From Chloroflexaceae bacterium (GTDB lineage: Bacteria; Chloroflexota; Chloroflexia; Chloroflexales; Chloroflexaceae), in NCBI GenBank assembly GCA_025057155.1, contig JANWYD010000006.1, positions 1-64,000 of the forward strand: a stretch of DNA of 64,000 bases. Direction: 5' to 3'. The notes under the pieces were generated by a model. The model searched no databases. It was not told the DNA's origin and was given only the letters and a program-made list of their open reading frames with translations. A program made the translations under genes and the position numbers. This document shows positions 22,422 to 32,326 of the stretch, piece by piece (position 1 is the first letter of the stretch; every line of letters starts with the position of its first letter).

Positions 22422-23285
22422 ATGAACCTCGAACCTTTGCCTCCCGAACTGGCCGATAAAGCGGCGCGCCTGCGGGCGATCCTGCGGGGCCTGGACGGCG
22501 CGGTGATTGCCATGTCGGGCGGCGTGGATAGCACGCTGCTGGTCCATGCGACGCACGCCGCCCTGGGGGACCGCGCCCTGGCCGTCACCGCTGATTCGCC
22601 GTCGTTGCCGCGCCGCGAGTTGCGGGAGGCGGAGGAACTGGCGCGTCTGATCGGCGTGCGCCATCTGGTCATCACGACCGATGAGGTCGCCGACCCGCGC
22701 TACGCAGCCAACCCAGCCAATCGCTGCTACTTTTGCAAGCGCGAGCTGTTCACCCGGCTGCGCGCCCTGGCCGATGAGTACAATCTGCCCTGGGTGCTCT
22801 ATGGCGATAACCTCGACGATCTGGGCGACCACCGTCCAGGGGCGCAGGCGGCGCTGGAGCACGGCGTGCGCGCGCCGCTGAAGGAGGCCGGCCTGACCAA
22901 GGCCGACATCCGCGCTCTGGCGCGCTGGCATGGCCTGCCGGTGTGGGACAAGCCGGCCTTCGCCTGTCTCGGCTCGCGCTTTCCCTACGGCACGCCGATC
23001 ACCCCCGCAAAGCTGGCGCAGGTGGAGGCGGCGGAGGAGGTGCTGCGCGAACTGGGCCTGCGGCAGTACCGGGTGCGGCACCATGGCGACCTGGCGCGGA
23101 TCGAAGTCGAAGCGGCGGATATGCCGCGGCTGGTAGAACGCGCGGTCGAGGTGGTCGAGCGTATCCGCGCGGCGGCCGGCTTCCGCCATGTGACGCTGGA
23201 CCTCGCCGGTTACCGGCGGGGCAGCCTGAACGAGGGTCTGGATCTGACCGTCGCGCTCGAACCGGCGCAGCGAGGCCGGCCATGA
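22422..23285 (+). CDS. larE: Sulfur transferase LarE
   Basis: A 287-residue PP-loop ATPase that activates the LarB product and inserts sulfur to make the dithio nickel-pincer ligand. The ATP-binding SGGVDS is at 32-37, the LarE hallmark RCYFCKRELF at 101-110, and KPAFACLGSRFPYG (177-190) carries a Cys at 182, which I take to be the sulfur-site position (aligned from memory, not computed). The four terminal bases overlap the start of the next gene (ATGA). An in-frame GTG at 22341 would add 27 residues from repeat DNA and is less likely. Confidence 0.92.
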   Translation: MNLEPLPPELADKAARLRAILRGLDGAVIAMSGGVDSTLLVHATHAALGDRALAVTADSPSLPRRELREAEELARLIGVRHLVITTDEVADPRYAANPANRCYFCKRELFTRLRALADEYNLPWVLYGDNLDDLGDHRPGAQAALEHGVRAPLKEAGLTKADIRALARWHGLPVWDKPAFACLGSRFPYGTPITPAKLAQVEAAEEVLRELGLRQYRVRHHGDLARIEVEAADMPRLVERAVEVVERIRAAAGFRHVTLDLAGYRRGSLNEGLDLTVALEPAQRGRP

Positions 23286-24898
23286 GCGCGCCGCGGGACC
23301 GGCGGCTGGCTGCCGCGAAGCAGGTGGCGGCGCCGGCCCTTGGCCGGTGGCCGGCGCGCCTGGCGCGAACTCTGGCAGGGCTGGCCGGCCTCGCAGCGAT
23401 CAGTGCAGGTCTCTGGCTGCTGTTCACCTCGCGGGCGCCGCTGGCGGGTATCGAGCGCCTCACCCTGGGCGCGACGCCGGTGACGGTATACCGGCCCGCG
23501 GTCGCGGGACCGGCCCCGGCGGTCGTGATCGCCCACGGCTTCGCCGCCTCGCAGCAGATTATGGAGCCGTTCGCGCTCACGCTGGCGCGCAATGGCTACC
23601 TGGCGCTTACCTTCGACTTTCCCGGCCATGGGCGGAACACCGCGCCCCTCCGGGGCGATCTGGCCGACCGCGAAGGGCGTTACCGGCAGTTGCGAACGGC
23701 GCTTGACGCAGTGGTGGCCTATGCCCGCGAGCGCGGCGACGGACGGGTGGGGCTGGTGGGCCACTCCATGGGTAGCGAAGCGGTGGCGCGCTACGCGATG
23801 GAGCAGCCCGACATTGCCGCGACGGTCGCCGTCTCGCTGGTCTACGAGGGAACGACGGCCACGCGCCCGGCCAATCTGCTGGTGCTCACGGGCGCGCTGG
23901 AGGGCGGCCTGCAGCCCCTGGCGGAGGCGGTGATCGTCGAGGCGGCGGGGGCGGCGGGCGTTCCCGGAGAGACGTATGGCGATCCAGCGGCGGGCACAGG
24001 GCGGCGGGTGGTCTTCGTACCGGGCGCCGAGCACATCGGGGTCCTGTTTCACCCTGTGAGCATGGCCGAAACCCTGGGCTGGTTCCAGGCGGCTATGCCG
24101 CTCAGGGCGATGCCGCCGCCCGGCGCGGGCGTTCTCGACAACCGCCTGCCGGCCCTGGGGCTGGTGTACATCGGCGCGGTGCTGCTCTACTGGCCTCTGG
24201 TGCGCCTGTTGCAGCCCATCGGTCCCCTCGGCGGGCAGACGGCGCCCTTCCCGCGGCGCGGCTGGTGGGCGACGGCGCTCGCCCCGGCGCTGCTCGCGCC
24301 CCTGCTGCTGCGCCTGATCCCTGCGGGCGATCTGCTGCCCATTCGCGTCGGCGGGCCGCTGGCGCTCTTCTTCGGCCTCTACGGGCTGCTCACCGCCGCG
24401 GGGTTGGCTGCGCTGACCCGGGGCCGGCGCGCAGCGTGGAGCGGTCTGGCCGCCTGGCGGCGCGGCCTCCTCATGGCCGTGGCCGCCGCCCTGCTGGTGG
24501 TTGGCTATGTGTTGTTGAGCTTCGGCGTGCCGACCCACCTGTTCGTGCTCAACTACTTCCCTCCGCCTCCGCGCTGGCCGGTCTTCCTGGCGGTCTTCGC
24601 GGCCATGCTGCCCTACTTCCTGGCCGACGAGCGGTTGACCCGCGGAGCGGGAGCGCCGCGCGGGGCCTATGTGCTGACGAAGGGCGCGTTCTTTGGCGGC
24701 CTGATCCTGGCCATCGTCCTCAACCCGCGCGAACTGTTCTTCCTGGTGCTGATCGCCCCGCTCTTCGTCGTCTACTTCGTGATCTACGGTCTCCTGAGCG
24801 GTCTGGTGCACCGGCAAACCCGAACCATCGTGGTAGGCGCGCTGGTGAACGCGGTCCTGTTCGCCTGGATCGTCGCGGCCACCTTCCCGCTGACGTAA
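23282..24898 (+). CDS. Membrane-anchored alpha/beta hydrolase with C-terminal multi-helix domain
   Basis: A 538-residue protein. After an N-terminal membrane helix (about 28-45), residues 60-275 form an alpha/beta hydrolase: VVIAHGFAASQQ (oxyanion region), FDFPGHGRNT, and nucleophile serine in VGHSMGSEA (about 160), with histidine in GAEHIGVLF (about 252). The second half has about eight hydrophobic helices (from LPALGLVYIGAVLLYWPLV onward). The membrane half has no function I recognise. Its ATG overlaps the larE stop, so it is cotranslated with larE, but a role in the cofactor pathway is not established. Confidence 0.8.
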   Translation: MSAPRDRRLAAAKQVAAPALGRWPARLARTLAGLAGLAAISAGLWLLFTSRAPLAGIERLTLGATPVTVYRPAVAGPAPAVVIAHGFAASQQIMEPFALTLARNGYLALTFDFPGHGRNTAPLRGDLADREGRYRQLRTALDAVVAYARERGDGRVGLVGHSMGSEAVARYAMEQPDIAATVAVSLVYEGTTATRPANLLVLTGALEGGLQPLAEAVIVEAAGAAGVPGETYGDPAAGTGRRVVFVPGAEHIGVLFHPVSMAETLGWFQAAMPLRAMPPPGAGVLDNRLPALGLVYIGAVLLYWPLVRLLQPIGPLGGQTAPFPRRGWWATALAPALLAPLLLRLIPAGDLLPIRVGGPLALFFGLYGLLTAAGLAALTRGRRAAWSGLAAWRRGLLMAVAAALLVVGYVLLSFGVPTHLFVLNYFPPPPRWPVFLAVFAAMLPYFLADERLTRGAGAPRGAYVLTKGAFFGGLILAIVLNPRELFFLVLIAPLFVVYFVIYGLLSGLVHRQTRTIVVGALVNAVLFAWIVAATFPLT

Positions 24899-26901: not shown

Positions 26902-27060
26902 TCCTCACCCTCCCCCCGGCCCCTTCCCTCTCCACCAAAGGTGAAGAGGGAGGGGGCGCCACGCAGCGCGCGGCGGGGAAGGGTGAGGAGCAATACCCTA
27001 CCGGCAGGTGGAGGAGGAGGATGGGGAAACCAGGTCTCCCCACGCCCCTGCCGATGAAGT
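26902..27060. repeat. Palindromic spacer before the phosphorylase gene
   Basis: TCCTCACCCTCCCC is mirrored by GGGAAGGGTGAGGA (26902-26992), with inner CTCTCCACC/GGTGAAGAG. A GGGGAAACC/GGTCTCCCC palindrome follows at 27023-27041, bracketed by GGCAGG and CCTGCC. Confidence 0.6.
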
Positions 27061-27115
27061 GACACGATCCTCCGGGTTGCAGTGCGAAGGCCCGGTTGTT
27101 GCCCGGCGAGGCAGT

Positions 27116-27943
27116 ATGGAGGTTTATGATCGCATCGAACAGGCGCGGGCGAGGATCGCCGAGCGGCTGGCGCTCACGCCGCGGGTCGGCCTGATCCTCG
27201 GCTCGGGGCTGGGCGCGCTGGCTGATGCCCTGGAGCAGGCTGTTGTCATACCCTACCAGGACATTCCCGGGTTTCACCAGCCGAAGGTGGCGGGCCATCG
27301 CGGCGAGCTGGCGGTGGGCTTGCTGAGCGGCCAGCCGGTGGCGGCGCTCCGCGGGCGCTTCCACTTCTACGAAGGCTATACAATGCAAGAGGTGACCTTC
27401 CCGGTGCGCGTGCTGCGCGCTCTGGGATGCGACACGCTCATTGTCACCAATGCCGCGGGCGGGCTGCGTCCCGACTGGCAGGTCGGCGATATTATGCGCA
27501 TCAGCGACCAGATCTTTCTGCCGGGTATGGCCGGCCACCATCCCCTGATTGGCCCGAACGACGACCGACTCGGGCCGCGCTTCCCAGCAATGGTCGGGGC
27601 CTTCGACGACGAGTTAGCGGCGCTGGCCCGCGCCGTCGCCGCGGAGCAGGGAACGCCATTGCGCGAAGGGGTATACTGTATGGTAGCCGGGCCGAGTTTC
27701 GAGAGCGCCGCCGAGTTGCGCCTGCTGCGCGCCCTCGGCGCCGACGCGGTGGGAATGTCCACCGCTCCCGAGGTGGTGGTGGCGCACCACGGCGGCATGC
27801 GCATCCTGGGCCTCTCGCTGATCACCAATCTGGCCCTGCCTGATGGCCCGCCGGCCAATCACGAGGAAGTGCTCGCCGCTGGCGAGCAGGCGCGGCCCCG
27901 CTTCGCCGCGCTGATCCAGGGGGTGCTGGCGAGGATGACCTGA
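27116..27943 (+). CDS. punA: Purine nucleoside phosphorylase
   Basis: A 275-residue trimeric-type PNP that splits inosine and guanosine with phosphate. Conserved sites: LILGSGLGALAD (phosphate loop, about 24-35), GHRGELAVG, LRGRFHFYEGY (about 80-90), TNAAGGL (about 114-120), MVAGPSFESAAELRLLRALGADAVGMSTAPEVV (glutamate and methionine of the base and ribose site) and the late LITNLA with the purine-binding asparagine. The ATG at 27116 fits the family N-terminus. It lies between the recO block and the double protease and seems monocistronic. Confidence 0.92.
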   Translation: MEVYDRIEQARARIAERLALTPRVGLILGSGLGALADALEQAVVIPYQDIPGFHQPKVAGHRGELAVGLLSGQPVAALRGRFHFYEGYTMQEVTFPVRVLRALGCDTLIVTNAAGGLRPDWQVGDIMRISDQIFLPGMAGHHPLIGPNDDRLGPRFPAMVGAFDDELAALARAVAAEQGTPLREGVYCMVAGPSFESAAELRLLRALGADAVGMSTAPEVVVAHHGGMRILGLSLITNLALPDGPPANHEEVLAAGEQARPRFAALIQGVLARMT

Positions 27944-28066: not shown

Positions 28067-30943
28067 ATGCGCCCTCTGACCCCCCTGGAACGCATTGAAG
28101 CAATGGACGCGGCGGTGCGCGACCGGCTGGCGACGTACTGGATCGCCAGCGTTGAGGAGTTCTACGCCACGGTGCGTTCGAGCAACCAGCAGTATGGCAC
28201 GGGAGTGCAGGCCCTGGCGGTGGCGCTGGAGCTTCCCGAAGAGCGGGTGCGCGCGCTGGCCGAGGCGGCCCTGCCGTTGCTGCCCGAGGGCGTCTCCTTC
28301 AGCGTGCCGGTCGAACTGGAGGTCGGCGCGGGTCTGGTGATTGACGCCTACGAGGACGTGGAGGTCGCGGCGTTCGCCCCGCCCACAACGTTGCCCGCAC
28401 GGGTCGATCCGCCAGCGCACCTGCCGCCGCCCGGCAATCAGGGGGTGCGCAATTCCTGCGTGGCCTTCACCCTGGCCGCCCTCTTTCAGGCCCGCAGCGG
28501 CGATCCGACCGATCTCTCCGAGCAGTTCCTCTACTGGGCCTGTAAGGAGCGCGACGGCATTCGCGGCGACGTGGGCACCGATCCGCTCGTGGGTGTGCGG
28601 GTGTTGCAGGATCTGGGCATCTGCACCGAGACCACCTGGCCTTACCGCCCCGCTCCCAGCGACCCCATCCGCCCCGGTCACGAGCGCCCGCCCGCGCAGG
28701 CCTTCGACGAGGCCCGATTGCGCCGCGTGACCGCATTTCGGAAACTGCCGGCGAAGGGGGTGTTGCAGATCAAGGAGGCCCTGGCGCAGGGCCACCCGGT
28801 GCTGCTCGGCCTGTACATCTGGGAGCACTGGAACGGCTCGTGGCAGGGGCGCGCCCTGGGGCGCGTGCGCTTTCCGCTGCCCGGCGAGGCGCGGCGGGGC
28901 GGCCACGCCGTGGCCGTGCTGGGCTACCGTGACGACGCGGACGCGCCCGGCGGCGGCTACTTTATCGCCCGCAACTCCTGGGGCCCTGACTGGGGCGCCG
29001 AGAACCCCGACGGGCCGGGCTACGCTCACGTGCCCTACCGCCTGGTCGCCGAGAGCGGTCTGGCGGCGATTGCCATTGAAGCAGTGGAGTGCCCGCGCCC
29101 CGTATCGCGCCCGGCGAGCGGCGAGCCGGCGCCGATGGGCCGGGCCGGCCTGGAGGAGTTGCACCGCGAGGCGCTGGCGTTGCGCGCCGACCTCCAGGCG
29201 CTTACGGCGCGCGTCGAGGCCCTGGCGGCGCGCCTGGGCGCGCTGGCGGGGGCAGGCGGCGCCGCGTCTCCCGGAGCGCCGTCGTCCGAGGCGACGGCCG
29301 CGCCCGCTCCCCCTGTAGCGCCCGCGGCGGAGGAGCGACGTCTCGCTGGCGGCCCGCTGCTCTTGATTCGCGGCGAAGGCCCCGGCGCGGGCGACGAACT
29401 CTACCCCAATGGCCTCTCGCCTGAGGGGACGCCATTGCTGCGCATCGACGCTGCCGCGGCCAGCGAACTGGCCCGCAGCGCCCTCGGCGCCGAACCGCCC
29501 GAGTTGCACGGCGTCTACAGGGCGAAAAAAGAGGTTGCGGAGACGACCCACCTCGGCGTGACCCGCGACATTGACCCCCTCGATCTGGCTCAGGCCCGCT
29601 GGGCGGTGGTGATCAACGCCACCGAGAGCGCCGAGCTGATCAAAGCCATCTGGCCGCTGATCGCTCACCGCATGGCTCAGATGGGCCTCGGCGCGCCAGC
29701 GGTGACCTTTGTCGAGGGCGAGAGCGCCGGGGCCTGGGTCAACCGGCACACCGACAATGGCAACAAGAACCTGCGCGAGCACTGGGGCCAGATCCCGCCC
29801 GTGCTGACCTACCGTCCCAACGAGCGCGCCGGGCGCTGGCTGGCCCGCCACGGGGTGAGCCAGGGGCCGGTCGATCCGCGCCGCGGCGTGCCCTACTACC
29901 TGCTGCTGCTCGGTCTGCCCGGCCCGCTCCACGCTGGCGATACGCGCTTCATTCCCTTCACCTTCCAGTATGAACTGGACCTGTTCTGGGCCGTCGGGCG
30001 CCTCTGCTTCACCGGGGCCGACGGCGACCATCGCCTGGCCGACTATGCCGCCTACGCCGAACGTCTGGCTGGCTTCGAGCAGCGGCCCGACCGGGCCGGC
30101 CAGGTGCGCAAGGAGGTGATCTACTACGCCACCCAGCACGACATGGACGTCGCCACACGGCGCAGCGCCGAGGAACTGGCGCGCCCGCTGATCCGCTGGA
30201 GCGGGGACCCCGCCAATGTGCCCCACAGGCAGGGCTTCGTGGCGCGCCCCTTCGTGGCCGGCGAAGCCGGCCGGGCTGCCCTCGAGCGCATCGTGCGCGG
30301 CGAGGGCGACGCCAGGGCCCCGGCGCTGCTCTTCGCCGCCTGCCACGGCCTGGGCCTGCCGCTGAGCGACGCGCGGCTCGTGCTGCACCAGGGCGCCCTG
30401 GTGACCCAGGACTGGAACGGCGCAGGCAATGTGCAACGCGAGCACTGGTTCGCCGGCGAGGATCTGGACGCCCGGGCTCATCTGGAGGGCACAATGGCGC
30501 TGCTCTTCGCCTGTTACGGCGCCGGGTGCCCCGACCGCGACGAGTTCATCTTCGACGAGACGCGGACGCGCCCCCAGGTGGCTCCCTTCCCCTTGATCGG
30601 CCAGTTGCCGCAGCGCCTGCTGCTCAGCGGCGTCCAGGCGGTCATCGGCCACGTCGAACGGGCCTGGACCTACTCCTTCAGCGGGACCGATGGCGCCCGC
30701 TCGCAGACGCAGGCCTTTGAGGATGTGATCGCCCGCCTGTTGCAGGGCGAGCCGGCGGGCAACGCCACCGACGACTTTAACATCGTGCAGGGAGCGCGAG
30801 CCATGGCCCTCACCGAGGAACTCGAGAACATCAGGTTCGGCAAGATTGTGGACCCCCTCGAACTGGCCCAGCTCTGGGTGGCTCGCAACGACGCGCGCAA
30901 CTACGCCCTGCTGGGCGACCCCGCAGCGCGCCTGCCATGGTGA
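28067..30943 (+). CDS. Papain-like plus caspase-like (C25/CHAT-type) double protease
   Basis: A 958-residue cytoplasmic protein. Residues 1-75 are helical. A C1A papain-like domain (about 115-340) has Cys131 (NQGVRNSCVAF), His280 (GGHAVAVLGY) and Asn303 (ARNSWGPDWG). A coiled coil (about 360-395) and an Ala/Pro linker follow. The C-terminal half (about 430-958) resembles gingipain/CHAT-type caspase folds: His760 in LLFAACHGLG and Cys816 in ALLFACYGAG are the likely dyad, and it ends YALLGDPAARLPW, as C25-like domains often do. Both catalytic sets look complete. AAGGAG precedes the ATG. The target is unknown; an adaptor or cell-death role is conceivable. Confidence 0.85.
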   Translation: MRPLTPLERIEAMDAAVRDRLATYWIASVEEFYATVRSSNQQYGTGVQALAVALELPEERVRALAEAALPLLPEGVSFSVPVELEVGAGLVIDAYEDVEVAAFAPPTTLPARVDPPAHLPPPGNQGVRNSCVAFTLAALFQARSGDPTDLSEQFLYWACKERDGIRGDVGTDPLVGVRVLQDLGICTETTWPYRPAPSDPIRPGHERPPAQAFDEARLRRVTAFRKLPAKGVLQIKEALAQGHPVLLGLYIWEHWNGSWQGRALGRVRFPLPGEARRGGHAVAVLGYRDDADAPGGGYFIARNSWGPDWGAENPDGPGYAHVPYRLVAESGLAAIAIEAVECPRPVSRPASGEPAPMGRAGLEELHREALALRADLQALTARVEALAARLGALAGAGGAASPGAPSSEATAAPAPPVAPAAEERRLAGGPLLLIRGEGPGAGDELYPNGLSPEGTPLLRIDAAAASELARSALGAEPPELHGVYRAKKEVAETTHLGVTRDIDPLDLAQARWAVVINATESAELIKAIWPLIAHRMAQMGLGAPAVTFVEGESAGAWVNRHTDNGNKNLREHWGQIPPVLTYRPNERAGRWLARHGVSQGPVDPRRGVPYYLLLLGLPGPLHAGDTRFIPFTFQYELDLFWAVGRLCFTGADGDHRLADYAAYAERLAGFEQRPDRAGQVRKEVIYYATQHDMDVATRRSAEELARPLIRWSGDPANVPHRQGFVARPFVAGEAGRAALERIVRGEGDARAPALLFAACHGLGLPLSDARLVLHQGALVTQDWNGAGNVQREHWFAGEDLDARAHLEGTMALLFACYGAGCPDRDEFIFDETRTRPQVAPFPLIGQLPQRLLLSGVQAVIGHVERAWTYSFSGTDGARSQTQAFEDVIARLLQGEPAGNATDDFNIVQGARAMALTEELENIRFGKIVDPLELAQLWVARNDARNYALLGDPAARLPW

Positions 30944-31022: not shown

Positions 31023-31141
31023 GCCCTCCAACCGCTGCCGGAGCGCCTGACACCCCGGCAGGCATGCGGAAATCCGCTTTCTCCCTACCGCAACCCTCCG
31101 GGTTGCGCATCGTTTTTCAACCGGCATTGTGGAGACCACAT

Positions 31142-32326
31142 ATGACACTCGACGCCGAAACGCTATTGAACTGGTTAGGGCCGCGTCTGCCAACGTATGT
31201 CGCAGAGCTGGAGCAGGTGTGCGCGATTGACAGCCCCACCGGGTATCGCCCCGGCATTGAGGCAATGGGTCAGTGGGCGGAGAGGTGGGCAATGGCGCGG
31301 GGCTGGGAGGTGCGCCGGTTCCCCGACGCGCAGGCTGGTGACGGGCTGGCGCTCACCACGCATGGCACGGGCCAGCTCCGCGTCATGCTGGCGGCGCACC
31401 TCGACACGGTATACCCCGTAGGCACGGCGGCGGCGCGGCCACTGCGTCGCGCGGGCGAACGGCTGGTCGGACCGGGGAGCGCCGACAACAAGGGCGGGTT
31501 GCTCTCGGCGCTCTACGCGGTCGAGGCCCTGGCGGCCCTGGCGCCGCAGAGCTTCGCTACGCTGAGCGTCGTCTGCGGCAGCGACGAGGAGCGCGACAAT
31601 CGGGTCTCGCAGGCCATGCTCGAAGCCCTGGCGCCTGGATATGATCTGACCCTGGTAATGGAGCCGGGCCGACCGAATGGCAATATTGTCAGCGCGCGCA
31701 AGGGCGCCGGCGTATTCGTGCTCGAGGTAACCGGGCGCGCCGCCCACGCGGGCGCTGCGCCTGAGCGCGGGATCAACGCAATCCTGGCGCTGGCCCATCA
31801 GATCATCGCCCTGCAAGGGCTCAACGGGATGCGCCCCGGCGTCACGGTGAACGTGGGCGTGATCGAGGGGGGCGATGCGCCCAACGTGGTGCCGGCGCGG
31901 GCACAGGCGCAGGTGGATGTGCGGGTGACGGCGCCGGAAGACATGGCAGCGGTGACTGCGGCGGTGGAGGCCATCGCCGCCAGGGAGACGGTTCCGGGCG
32001 CTACCAGCCAGGTGAGCGGAGGGTGGACCTTCGCGCCCATGGCGCGGACGCCGGCGATCAGCCGTCTGGTAGACCTGGCGCGGGCCTGCGCGGGCGAACT
32101 GGGCTTTACGCTTGGCGACACGGCCACCGGAGGGGCGAGTTACGCCAACCTGCTCGCGGGCATGGGCCTGCCCGTGCTGGACGGCCTGGGTCCCATCGGG
32201 GGCAACTACCACAGTCCCGACGAATACATCGAGGAAGCCAGCATCGTGCCGCGCATCGCTCTGGTGGCGCTGCTGGTCAGCCGGGCGGGCGCCAGGGGGT
32301 CGAATGAGTTGAAAGGCAACGACTAA
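31142..32326 (+). CDS. M20-family metallopeptidase (carboxypeptidase G2-like)
   Basis: A 394-residue dizinc hydrolase. The ligands appear as AAHLDTV (about 85-91), GSADNKGG (bridging Asp, about 117), SDEER (general base and ligand Glu, about 151-152), VMEPGRPNG (about 175) and NYHSPDEYI (final His, about 362). The lid domain with RAAHAGAAPERGINAI (about 197-212) contains the dimer histidine. Closest in style are glutamate carboxypeptidases and aminoacylases that trim amide-linked amino acids. There is no signal peptide, so it should be cytoplasmic. Confidence 0.9.
   Translation: MTLDAETLLNWLGPRLPTYVAELEQVCAIDSPTGYRPGIEAMGQWAERWAMARGWEVRRFPDAQAGDGLALTTHGTGQLRVMLAAHLDTVYPVGTAAARPLRRAGERLVGPGSADNKGGLLSALYAVEALAALAPQSFATLSVVCGSDEERDNRVSQAMLEALAPGYDLTLVMEPGRPNGNIVSARKGAGVFVLEVTGRAAHAGAAPERGINAILALAHQIIALQGLNGMRPGVTVNVGVIEGGDAPNVVPARAQAQVDVRVTAPEDMAAVTAAVEAIAARETVPGATSQVSGGWTFAPMARTPAISRLVDLARACAGELGFTLGDTATGGASYANLLAGMGLPVLDGLGPIGGNYHSPDEYIEEASIVPRIALVALLVSRAGARGSNELKGND

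What the first reader, a model, noticed from the sequence alone, without database searches (positions are those of the whole stretch)
28067..30943. Two complete cysteine-protease domains of different folds in one cytoplasmic protein
An N-terminal papain-like domain (C131, H280, N303) is joined by a coiled coil to a C25/CHAT-like caspase fold (H760, C816, ending LLGDPAARLPW). Both catalytic sets look intact and there is no signal peptide, so both would act in the cytosol. One domain may mature or be switched by the other, as in proteolytic cascades and CHAT-based defence.
Basis: partly seen in the sequence, partly recalled or inferred. Interest (0 to 1): 0.75.

Follow-up and report, generated by a model that had tools for sequence, protein, structure and literature searches.

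The report
Two-headed intracellular cysteine protease
Photosynthetic filamentous Chloroflexi carry one conserved cytoplasmic protein that joins a papain-type protease to a gingipain-type (caspase-relative) protease, whose closest relatives in other bacteria sit inside predicted self-defence or suicide gene clusters, so it is a good candidate for a built-in proteolytic switch.

Summary
ORF 28067-30943(+) encodes 958 aa: an HhH-like helical region (1-98), a papain domain (Q125/C131/H280/N303), a short coiled coil, a variable linker, and a C-terminal half that folds with high confidence (pLDDT 93) as a complete two-subdomain gingipain-type C25 unit (best solved match gingipain R, Z 22.5; craspase TPR-CHAT 14.8). 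H760 and C816 follow two strands of one sheet, as in caspases and gingipains. Both catalytic sets are invariant in all 28 dual proteins compared; no signal peptide or TM segment was seen. The dual form is a near-core gene of Chloroflexaceae at a fixed chromosomal site (recO - PH - PNP - dual), found only in Chloroflexales. The C25 half alone is widespread (Cyanobacteria, Planctomycetes, Cupriavidus and others); there 38 of 49 loci lie beside CHAT or nSTAND genes, many beside an alpha/beta-hydrolase, and it is also fused to TIR or nitrilase. Two divergent dual proteins sit beside CHAT genes, one in a CHAT-SIR2/nSTAND1-WD40 cluster. Best reading: a signal-gated intracellular proteolytic effector derived from such conflict systems, kept by vertical descent at the core locus. 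Cis-maturation at Arg/Lys in the linker is not supported by conservation. Trigger and substrates are unknown.

The parts
28067..30943 (+). CDS of the 958-aa papain-C25 dual protease
   Evidence: relatives
28067..28360 (+). N-terminal helical region, residues 1-98, helix-hairpin-helix (DUF4332)-like
   Evidence: profile A5 hits a DUF4332/HHH protein of the same genome, E 1.5e-4; no convincing Pfam match of its own
28376..29101 (+). papain-like (C1A, xylellain-type) domain, residues 104-345; Q125 28439-28441, C131 28457-28459, H280 28904-28906, N303 28973-28975
   Evidence: invariance
29147..29254 (+). coiled coil, residues 361-396
   Evidence: heptad scan, kept in relatives
29255..29353 (+). 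variable Pro/Ala-rich linker, residues 397-429
29354..30940 (+). gingipain-type C25 catalytic unit, residues 430-958 (subdomain A about 491-673, subdomain B about 674-958); H760 30344-30346, C816 30512-30514; ends LLGDPAARLPW
   Evidence: AF2 model; fold search; H/C invariant in 70 of 70
27008..27943 (+). purine nucleoside phosphorylase family gene directly upstream; conserved neighbour
   Evidence: PF01048; synteny
31064..32326 (+). M20-family peptidase gene directly downstream; neighbour in 8 other loci
   Evidence: PF01546

Best explanation
A cytoplasmic, probably coiled-coil-oligomerised protein with two proteolytic heads that acts as a signal-gated proteolytic effector. Its C25 head belongs to an intracellular gingipain-fold family that in other bacteria is encoded with CHAT, nSTAND1-WD40, TIR, SIR2 and alpha/beta-hydrolase proteins, so the ancestral role is most likely a stress- or infection-triggered executioner. 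In Chloroflexales this head was fused once to an HhH-papain module, which takes the place of the usual hydrolase partner. I infer that a trigger (a partner protein or nucleic acid bound through the HhH-like region, or assembly through the coiled coil) opens one or both active sites, which then cut specific intracellular proteins to halt or kill the cell. Shown: both heads, intact invariant catalytic sets, no export signal, a single fusion lineage, conflict-gene context of the C25 family. Inferred: trigger, order of the two activities, substrates, outcome.
For: Invariant active sites in 28 dual proteins; full gingipain fold; C25-only relatives lie beside CHAT and/or nSTAND in 38 of 49 loci against 0 of 30 core-locus loci, and many beside an alpha/beta-hydrolase with a GHS(F/Y)G elbow; C25 fused to TIR (L127) and to a nitrilase (L064); matching clusters CHAT-SIR2 / nSTAND1-WD40 / hydrolase / C25 in Cupriavidus (L113) and CHAT-SIR2 / nSTAND1-WD40 / DEAD / papain-C25 in Chloroploca (L108); one dual clade on the tree; Kaur et al. 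2020 report that caspase-superfamily domains in one class of such systems always have an alpha/beta-hydrolase neighbour (PMC7159879).
Against: The window's own locus has no conflict genes: it is a fixed core site beside recO, PNP and an M20 peptidase, single copy and vertically inherited, unlike most defence genes. The helical N-terminal region is not shared with other effectors of the genome as an EAD would be. No activity, trigger or substrate is known.
Confidence: 0.5

Rival explanations
1. A housekeeping cytosolic endoprotease for protein or peptide turnover: the two heads make peptides that the downstream M20 peptidase finishes, in an operon with nucleoside salvage (PNP).
For: Conserved order recO-PH-PNP-dual, with M20 directly downstream in 8 loci and PNP directly upstream on the same strand (overlap to 335 nt) in most loci that hold the upstream flank; N-domain found in 25 of 28 good family genomes.
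Against: C25 relatives are tied to CHAT/STAND/TIR, not to peptide catabolism; two divergent dual proteins lie beside CHAT genes; M20 is not always the neighbour.
Confidence: 0.27
2. A cis-acting cascade: one head is a zymogen matured by the other within the same chain.
For: Two intact heads joined by a long, probably exposed linker; clan CD and papain enzymes are often made as zymogens (general knowledge).
Against: The linker has no conserved site; 9 of 28 have no Lys or Arg there. One pair (L105) is encoded as two overlapping genes, so a covalent linker is not essential.
Confidence: 0.13
3. Only one head is catalytic in vivo; the other is a binding or regulatory domain that keeps its residues for structural reasons.
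For: The papain part is lost in several C25-only descendants inside the dual clade.
Against: All catalytic residues of both heads are invariant down to about 40% overall identity.
Confidence: 0.1

Closest known systems
Gingipains and MEROPS family C25 (clan CD)
   Same: two-subdomain caspase-like catalytic unit, His then Cys after successive strands, best solved fold match
   Different: gingipains are secreted proteases; this one has no export signal, only about 12% identity, and is fused to a papain domain
TPR-CHAT (Csx29, craspase) and SAVED-CHAT proteases of type III CRISPR
   Same: same clan, intracellular, next-best folds (Z 13-15), belong to regulated defence proteolysis
   Different: lower fold similarity, no papain head; CRISPR genes were not noticed at these loci but were not searched for systematically
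Caspase plus alpha/beta-hydrolase pairs in NTP-dependent conflict systems of multicellular bacteria (Kaur et al. 2020, PMC7159879)
   Same: C25-only relatives have the same pairing and a STAND/CHAT context
   Different: in the dual protein the hydrolase is absent and a papain module is fused; the window's locus is a core site
Xylellain (3ois) and short bacterial C1A peptidases
   Same: nearest solved papain relative, E 1.3e-22
   Different: free-standing short enzyme, without coiled coil or C25 head
Multi-peptidase proteins of the NucA-trypsin-subtilisin systems (Kaur et al. 2020)
   Same: two peptidase domains in one predicted conflict polypeptide
   Different: serine peptidases flanking a nuclease; different folds and taxa

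Membership tests
Papain family C1A | Gln-Cys-His-Asn catalytic set in papain order | tested here: met
   Q125, C131, H280, N303; PF00112 above cut-off
Papain family C1A | papain fold | tested here: inconclusive
   sequence match to 3ois and cathepsins only; the full-length model job failed and the tool was then off
Peptidase family C25 (gingipain type) | two-subdomain caspase-like catalytic unit | tested here: met
   VIA Z 22.5 to 1cvr over model 62-529
Peptidase family C25 (gingipain type) | His-Gly and Cys dyad at strand ends, in that order | tested here: met
   H760 and C816 invariant in 70 of 70, right order in the model's secondary structure; distance not measured
Peptidase family C25 (gingipain type) | PF01364 match above its cut-off | tested here: inconclusive
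   window protein none; 28 of 32 relatives match at E 1 or better, several above cut-off
CHAT | PF12770 match above its cut-off | tested here: not met
   window none; 5 of 32 relatives match, best E 1e-4
Caspase/hydrolase conflict systems (Kaur et al. 2020) | neighbouring alpha/beta-hydrolase and NTPase genes | tested here: not met
   0 of 30 core-locus loci have CHAT, nSTAND or the partner hydrolase; met by many C25-only relatives; L108 has nSTAND1 but no hydrolase. MoxR/vWA genes were not searched for
EAD-coupled effectors | small N-terminal adaptor shared with other proteins of the genome | tested here: inconclusive
   only one weak DUF4332/HHH hit elsewhere in the genome
Active cysteine protease | peptide-bond hydrolysis | not testable with these tools
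   needs an enzyme assay

The most novel reading that the evidence does not exclude
A new kind of bacterial death protease: one polypeptide in which a caspase/gingipain-fold head and a papain (cathepsin-like) head form a self-contained two-enzyme cascade, recruited from a mobile STAND/CHAT conflict system and fixed as a core programmed-death or stress switch in filamentous phototrophs.
Probability: 0.22. Interest if true: 0.85.

Novelty: new variant of a known kind. Interest (0 to 1): 0.58.

Why it matters
It joins in one bacterial protein the two protease folds (caspase-like and cathepsin-like) that animal cells use in death pathways, in a lineage of multicellular bacteria with cultured members. 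It also defines an intracellular gingipain-fold family, spread over many phyla and tied to STAND/CHAT/TIR clusters, which Pfam detects only weakly in some members and not in this one. If active, it would allow a direct test of whether conflict-system proteases become core regulators of cell fate.

Tried and rejected
Antisense 994-aa ORF as a gene: rejected (GC artefact). PADLOC and NCBIfam: no match for the window protein; PADLOC gave only 3 of 70 weak hits to PDC-S02. Viral contigs and phages: no C25 relative. Profile comparison of the C25 family with the genome's one classical C25 protein (L188) gave only a weak match in the N-terminal subdomain, so it did not test the dyad. Profile-to-PDB search with the C25 alignment found nothing real. 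Rosetta-stone splits: L105 looks genuine (ATGA overlap, in-frame stop just upstream), L082 may be a frameshift in an A10 run, so little weight is put on them. Literature searches found no paper on a papain-C25 fusion in the held open-access library; most subscription papers are not held.

Full report
1. What is there. The ORF at 28067-30943(+) is a real gene. Its 958 residues divide into: 1-98, a helical region whose profile finds a DUF4332/HHH domain in another protein of the same genome; 104-345, a papain domain (PF00112 E 1.1e-10; 3ois E 1.3e-22); 361-396, a coiled coil of about five heptads conserved in pattern among relatives; 397-429, a Pro/Ala-rich linker variable in length and sequence; and 430-958, a unit that no library names from the window sequence alone. 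No signal peptide or TM segment was seen.

2. The C-terminal half. 28 of 32 relatives match Peptidase_C25 (best 4e-10) and 5 match CHAT. An AF2 model built on 70 sequences has pLDDT 92.9 and pTM 0.94. Foldseek's best solved structure is gingipain K (E 1.6e-7). Re-alignment gives gingipain R Z 22.5 (309 residues, rmsd 3.4), gingipain K 20.6, then TPR-CHAT 14.8, separase 13.8, SAVED-CHAT 13.4, metacaspase 11.3 and MALT1 10.7. The match covers both subdomains. H760 follows the strand 322-329 and C816 the strand 381-385 of the model, the caspase/gingipain arrangement, and both are invariant in 70 of 70 aligned sequences.

3. Both active sites are kept. Across the window protein plus 27 dual proteins, overall identity down to 40%, Q125, C131, H280, N303, W305, H760 and C816 never vary (an overlapping set of 21 gave the same).

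4. Distribution and descent. In 400 Chloroflexota genomes the C25 half is found in 25, besides the window's own genome, most of them of the window's family. The N-domain profile finds 33 of 41 family genomes, 25 of 28 of good quality. In the GTDB scan 338 loci encode C25 relatives; of the best 80, all dual proteins are from Chloroflexales. A tree of 70 C25 units puts all papain-bearing proteins in one clade of 35 rows (SH-aLRT 100), with papain apparently lost later in L101/L103, L102/L104 and tandem Oscillochloris paralogues (midpoint root). The simplest history is one fusion, then losses. The papain module with its N-region also occurs with a different, beta-rich C-terminus in another Chloroflexota family (L190:497-2347).

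5. Neighbourhoods. Dual genes sit at a fixed site, recO - PH domain - PNP - dual, sometimes followed by an M20 peptidase and murJ. In 30 such core-lineage loci (455 kb) there is no CHAT, nSTAND or partner hydrolase. In 49 C25-only loci from the genome and plasmid scans, 38 have CHAT and/or nSTAND and 41 have at least one of CHAT, nSTAND or hydrolase (a further 16 C25-related loci, L055-L070, mostly Chloroflexaceae paralogues, have none and are included in the 65 of that output). The small HMMs were built from a few of these same loci, which slightly favours hits there. The hydrolase partner has a GHS(F/Y)G elbow in nearly all members. C25 is fused to TIR in L127 and to a nitrilase in L064. Cupriavidus L113 reads CHAT-SIR2, nSTAND1-WD40, hydrolase, C25; Chloroploca L108 reads CHAT-SIR2, nSTAND1-WD40, DEAD helicase, papain-C25. 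So papain-C25 can occupy the effector slot of the same kind of cluster. L107, the sister of L108, also has a CHAT neighbour.

6. Mechanism. The C25 head is most likely a regulated intracellular protease of conflict-system descent; the papain head is either a second effector or the activator. Kaur et al. (PMC7159879) noted that caspase-superfamily domains in one class of these systems always come with an alpha/beta-hydrolase; here papain appears to replace it (inference). Cleavage at Arg/Lys in the linker is not conserved (absent in 9 of 28), so maturation of one head by a gingipain-type cut at the linker is not favoured; trans-acting or allosteric control is. The core-locus form may have become a stress or cell-fate regulator, or, as the main rival, a turnover protease working with the M20 enzyme.

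7. Limits. No full-length model, so the relative placement of the heads is unknown. Absence of dual proteins outside Chloroflexales rests on the 80 best of 338 loci, the plasmid set and 400 Chloroflexota genomes. Nothing here shows enzymatic activity. Literature cover is the open-access library only.

Noticed in passing
window 22943-24898: Gene upstream of recO reads as an alpha/beta-hydrolase plus a polytopic membrane region (by eye, not scanned); homologues keep this place in a few close relatives.
   Followed up: partly
L188 (G000:C7:13204-14328): The genome also has one classical C25 protein (PF01364 E 1e-81) with GHG and Cys motifs, separate from the dual gene.
   Followed up: partly
L096:8546-17902: Oscillochloris ZM17-4 has the dual gene followed by three tandem C25-only paralogues with intact His/Cys.
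   Followed up: partly
L055-L063: A second C25-only lineage in Chloroflexaceae has about 200 extra C-terminal residues of unknown fold and a conserved neighbour of about 271 aa (cluster C5), away from CHAT/STAND genes.
   Followed up: no
L123:7944-9752: A lipoxygenase gene lies next to C25 in Gemmata; members of the same cluster (C21) occur beside C25 in other Planctomycetes and in Cyanobacteria, an odd partner for a protease cluster.
   Followed up: no
L190:497-2347: HhH-like/papain module joined to a C-terminus with weak CARDB/BACON-like matches instead of C25.
   Followed up: partly
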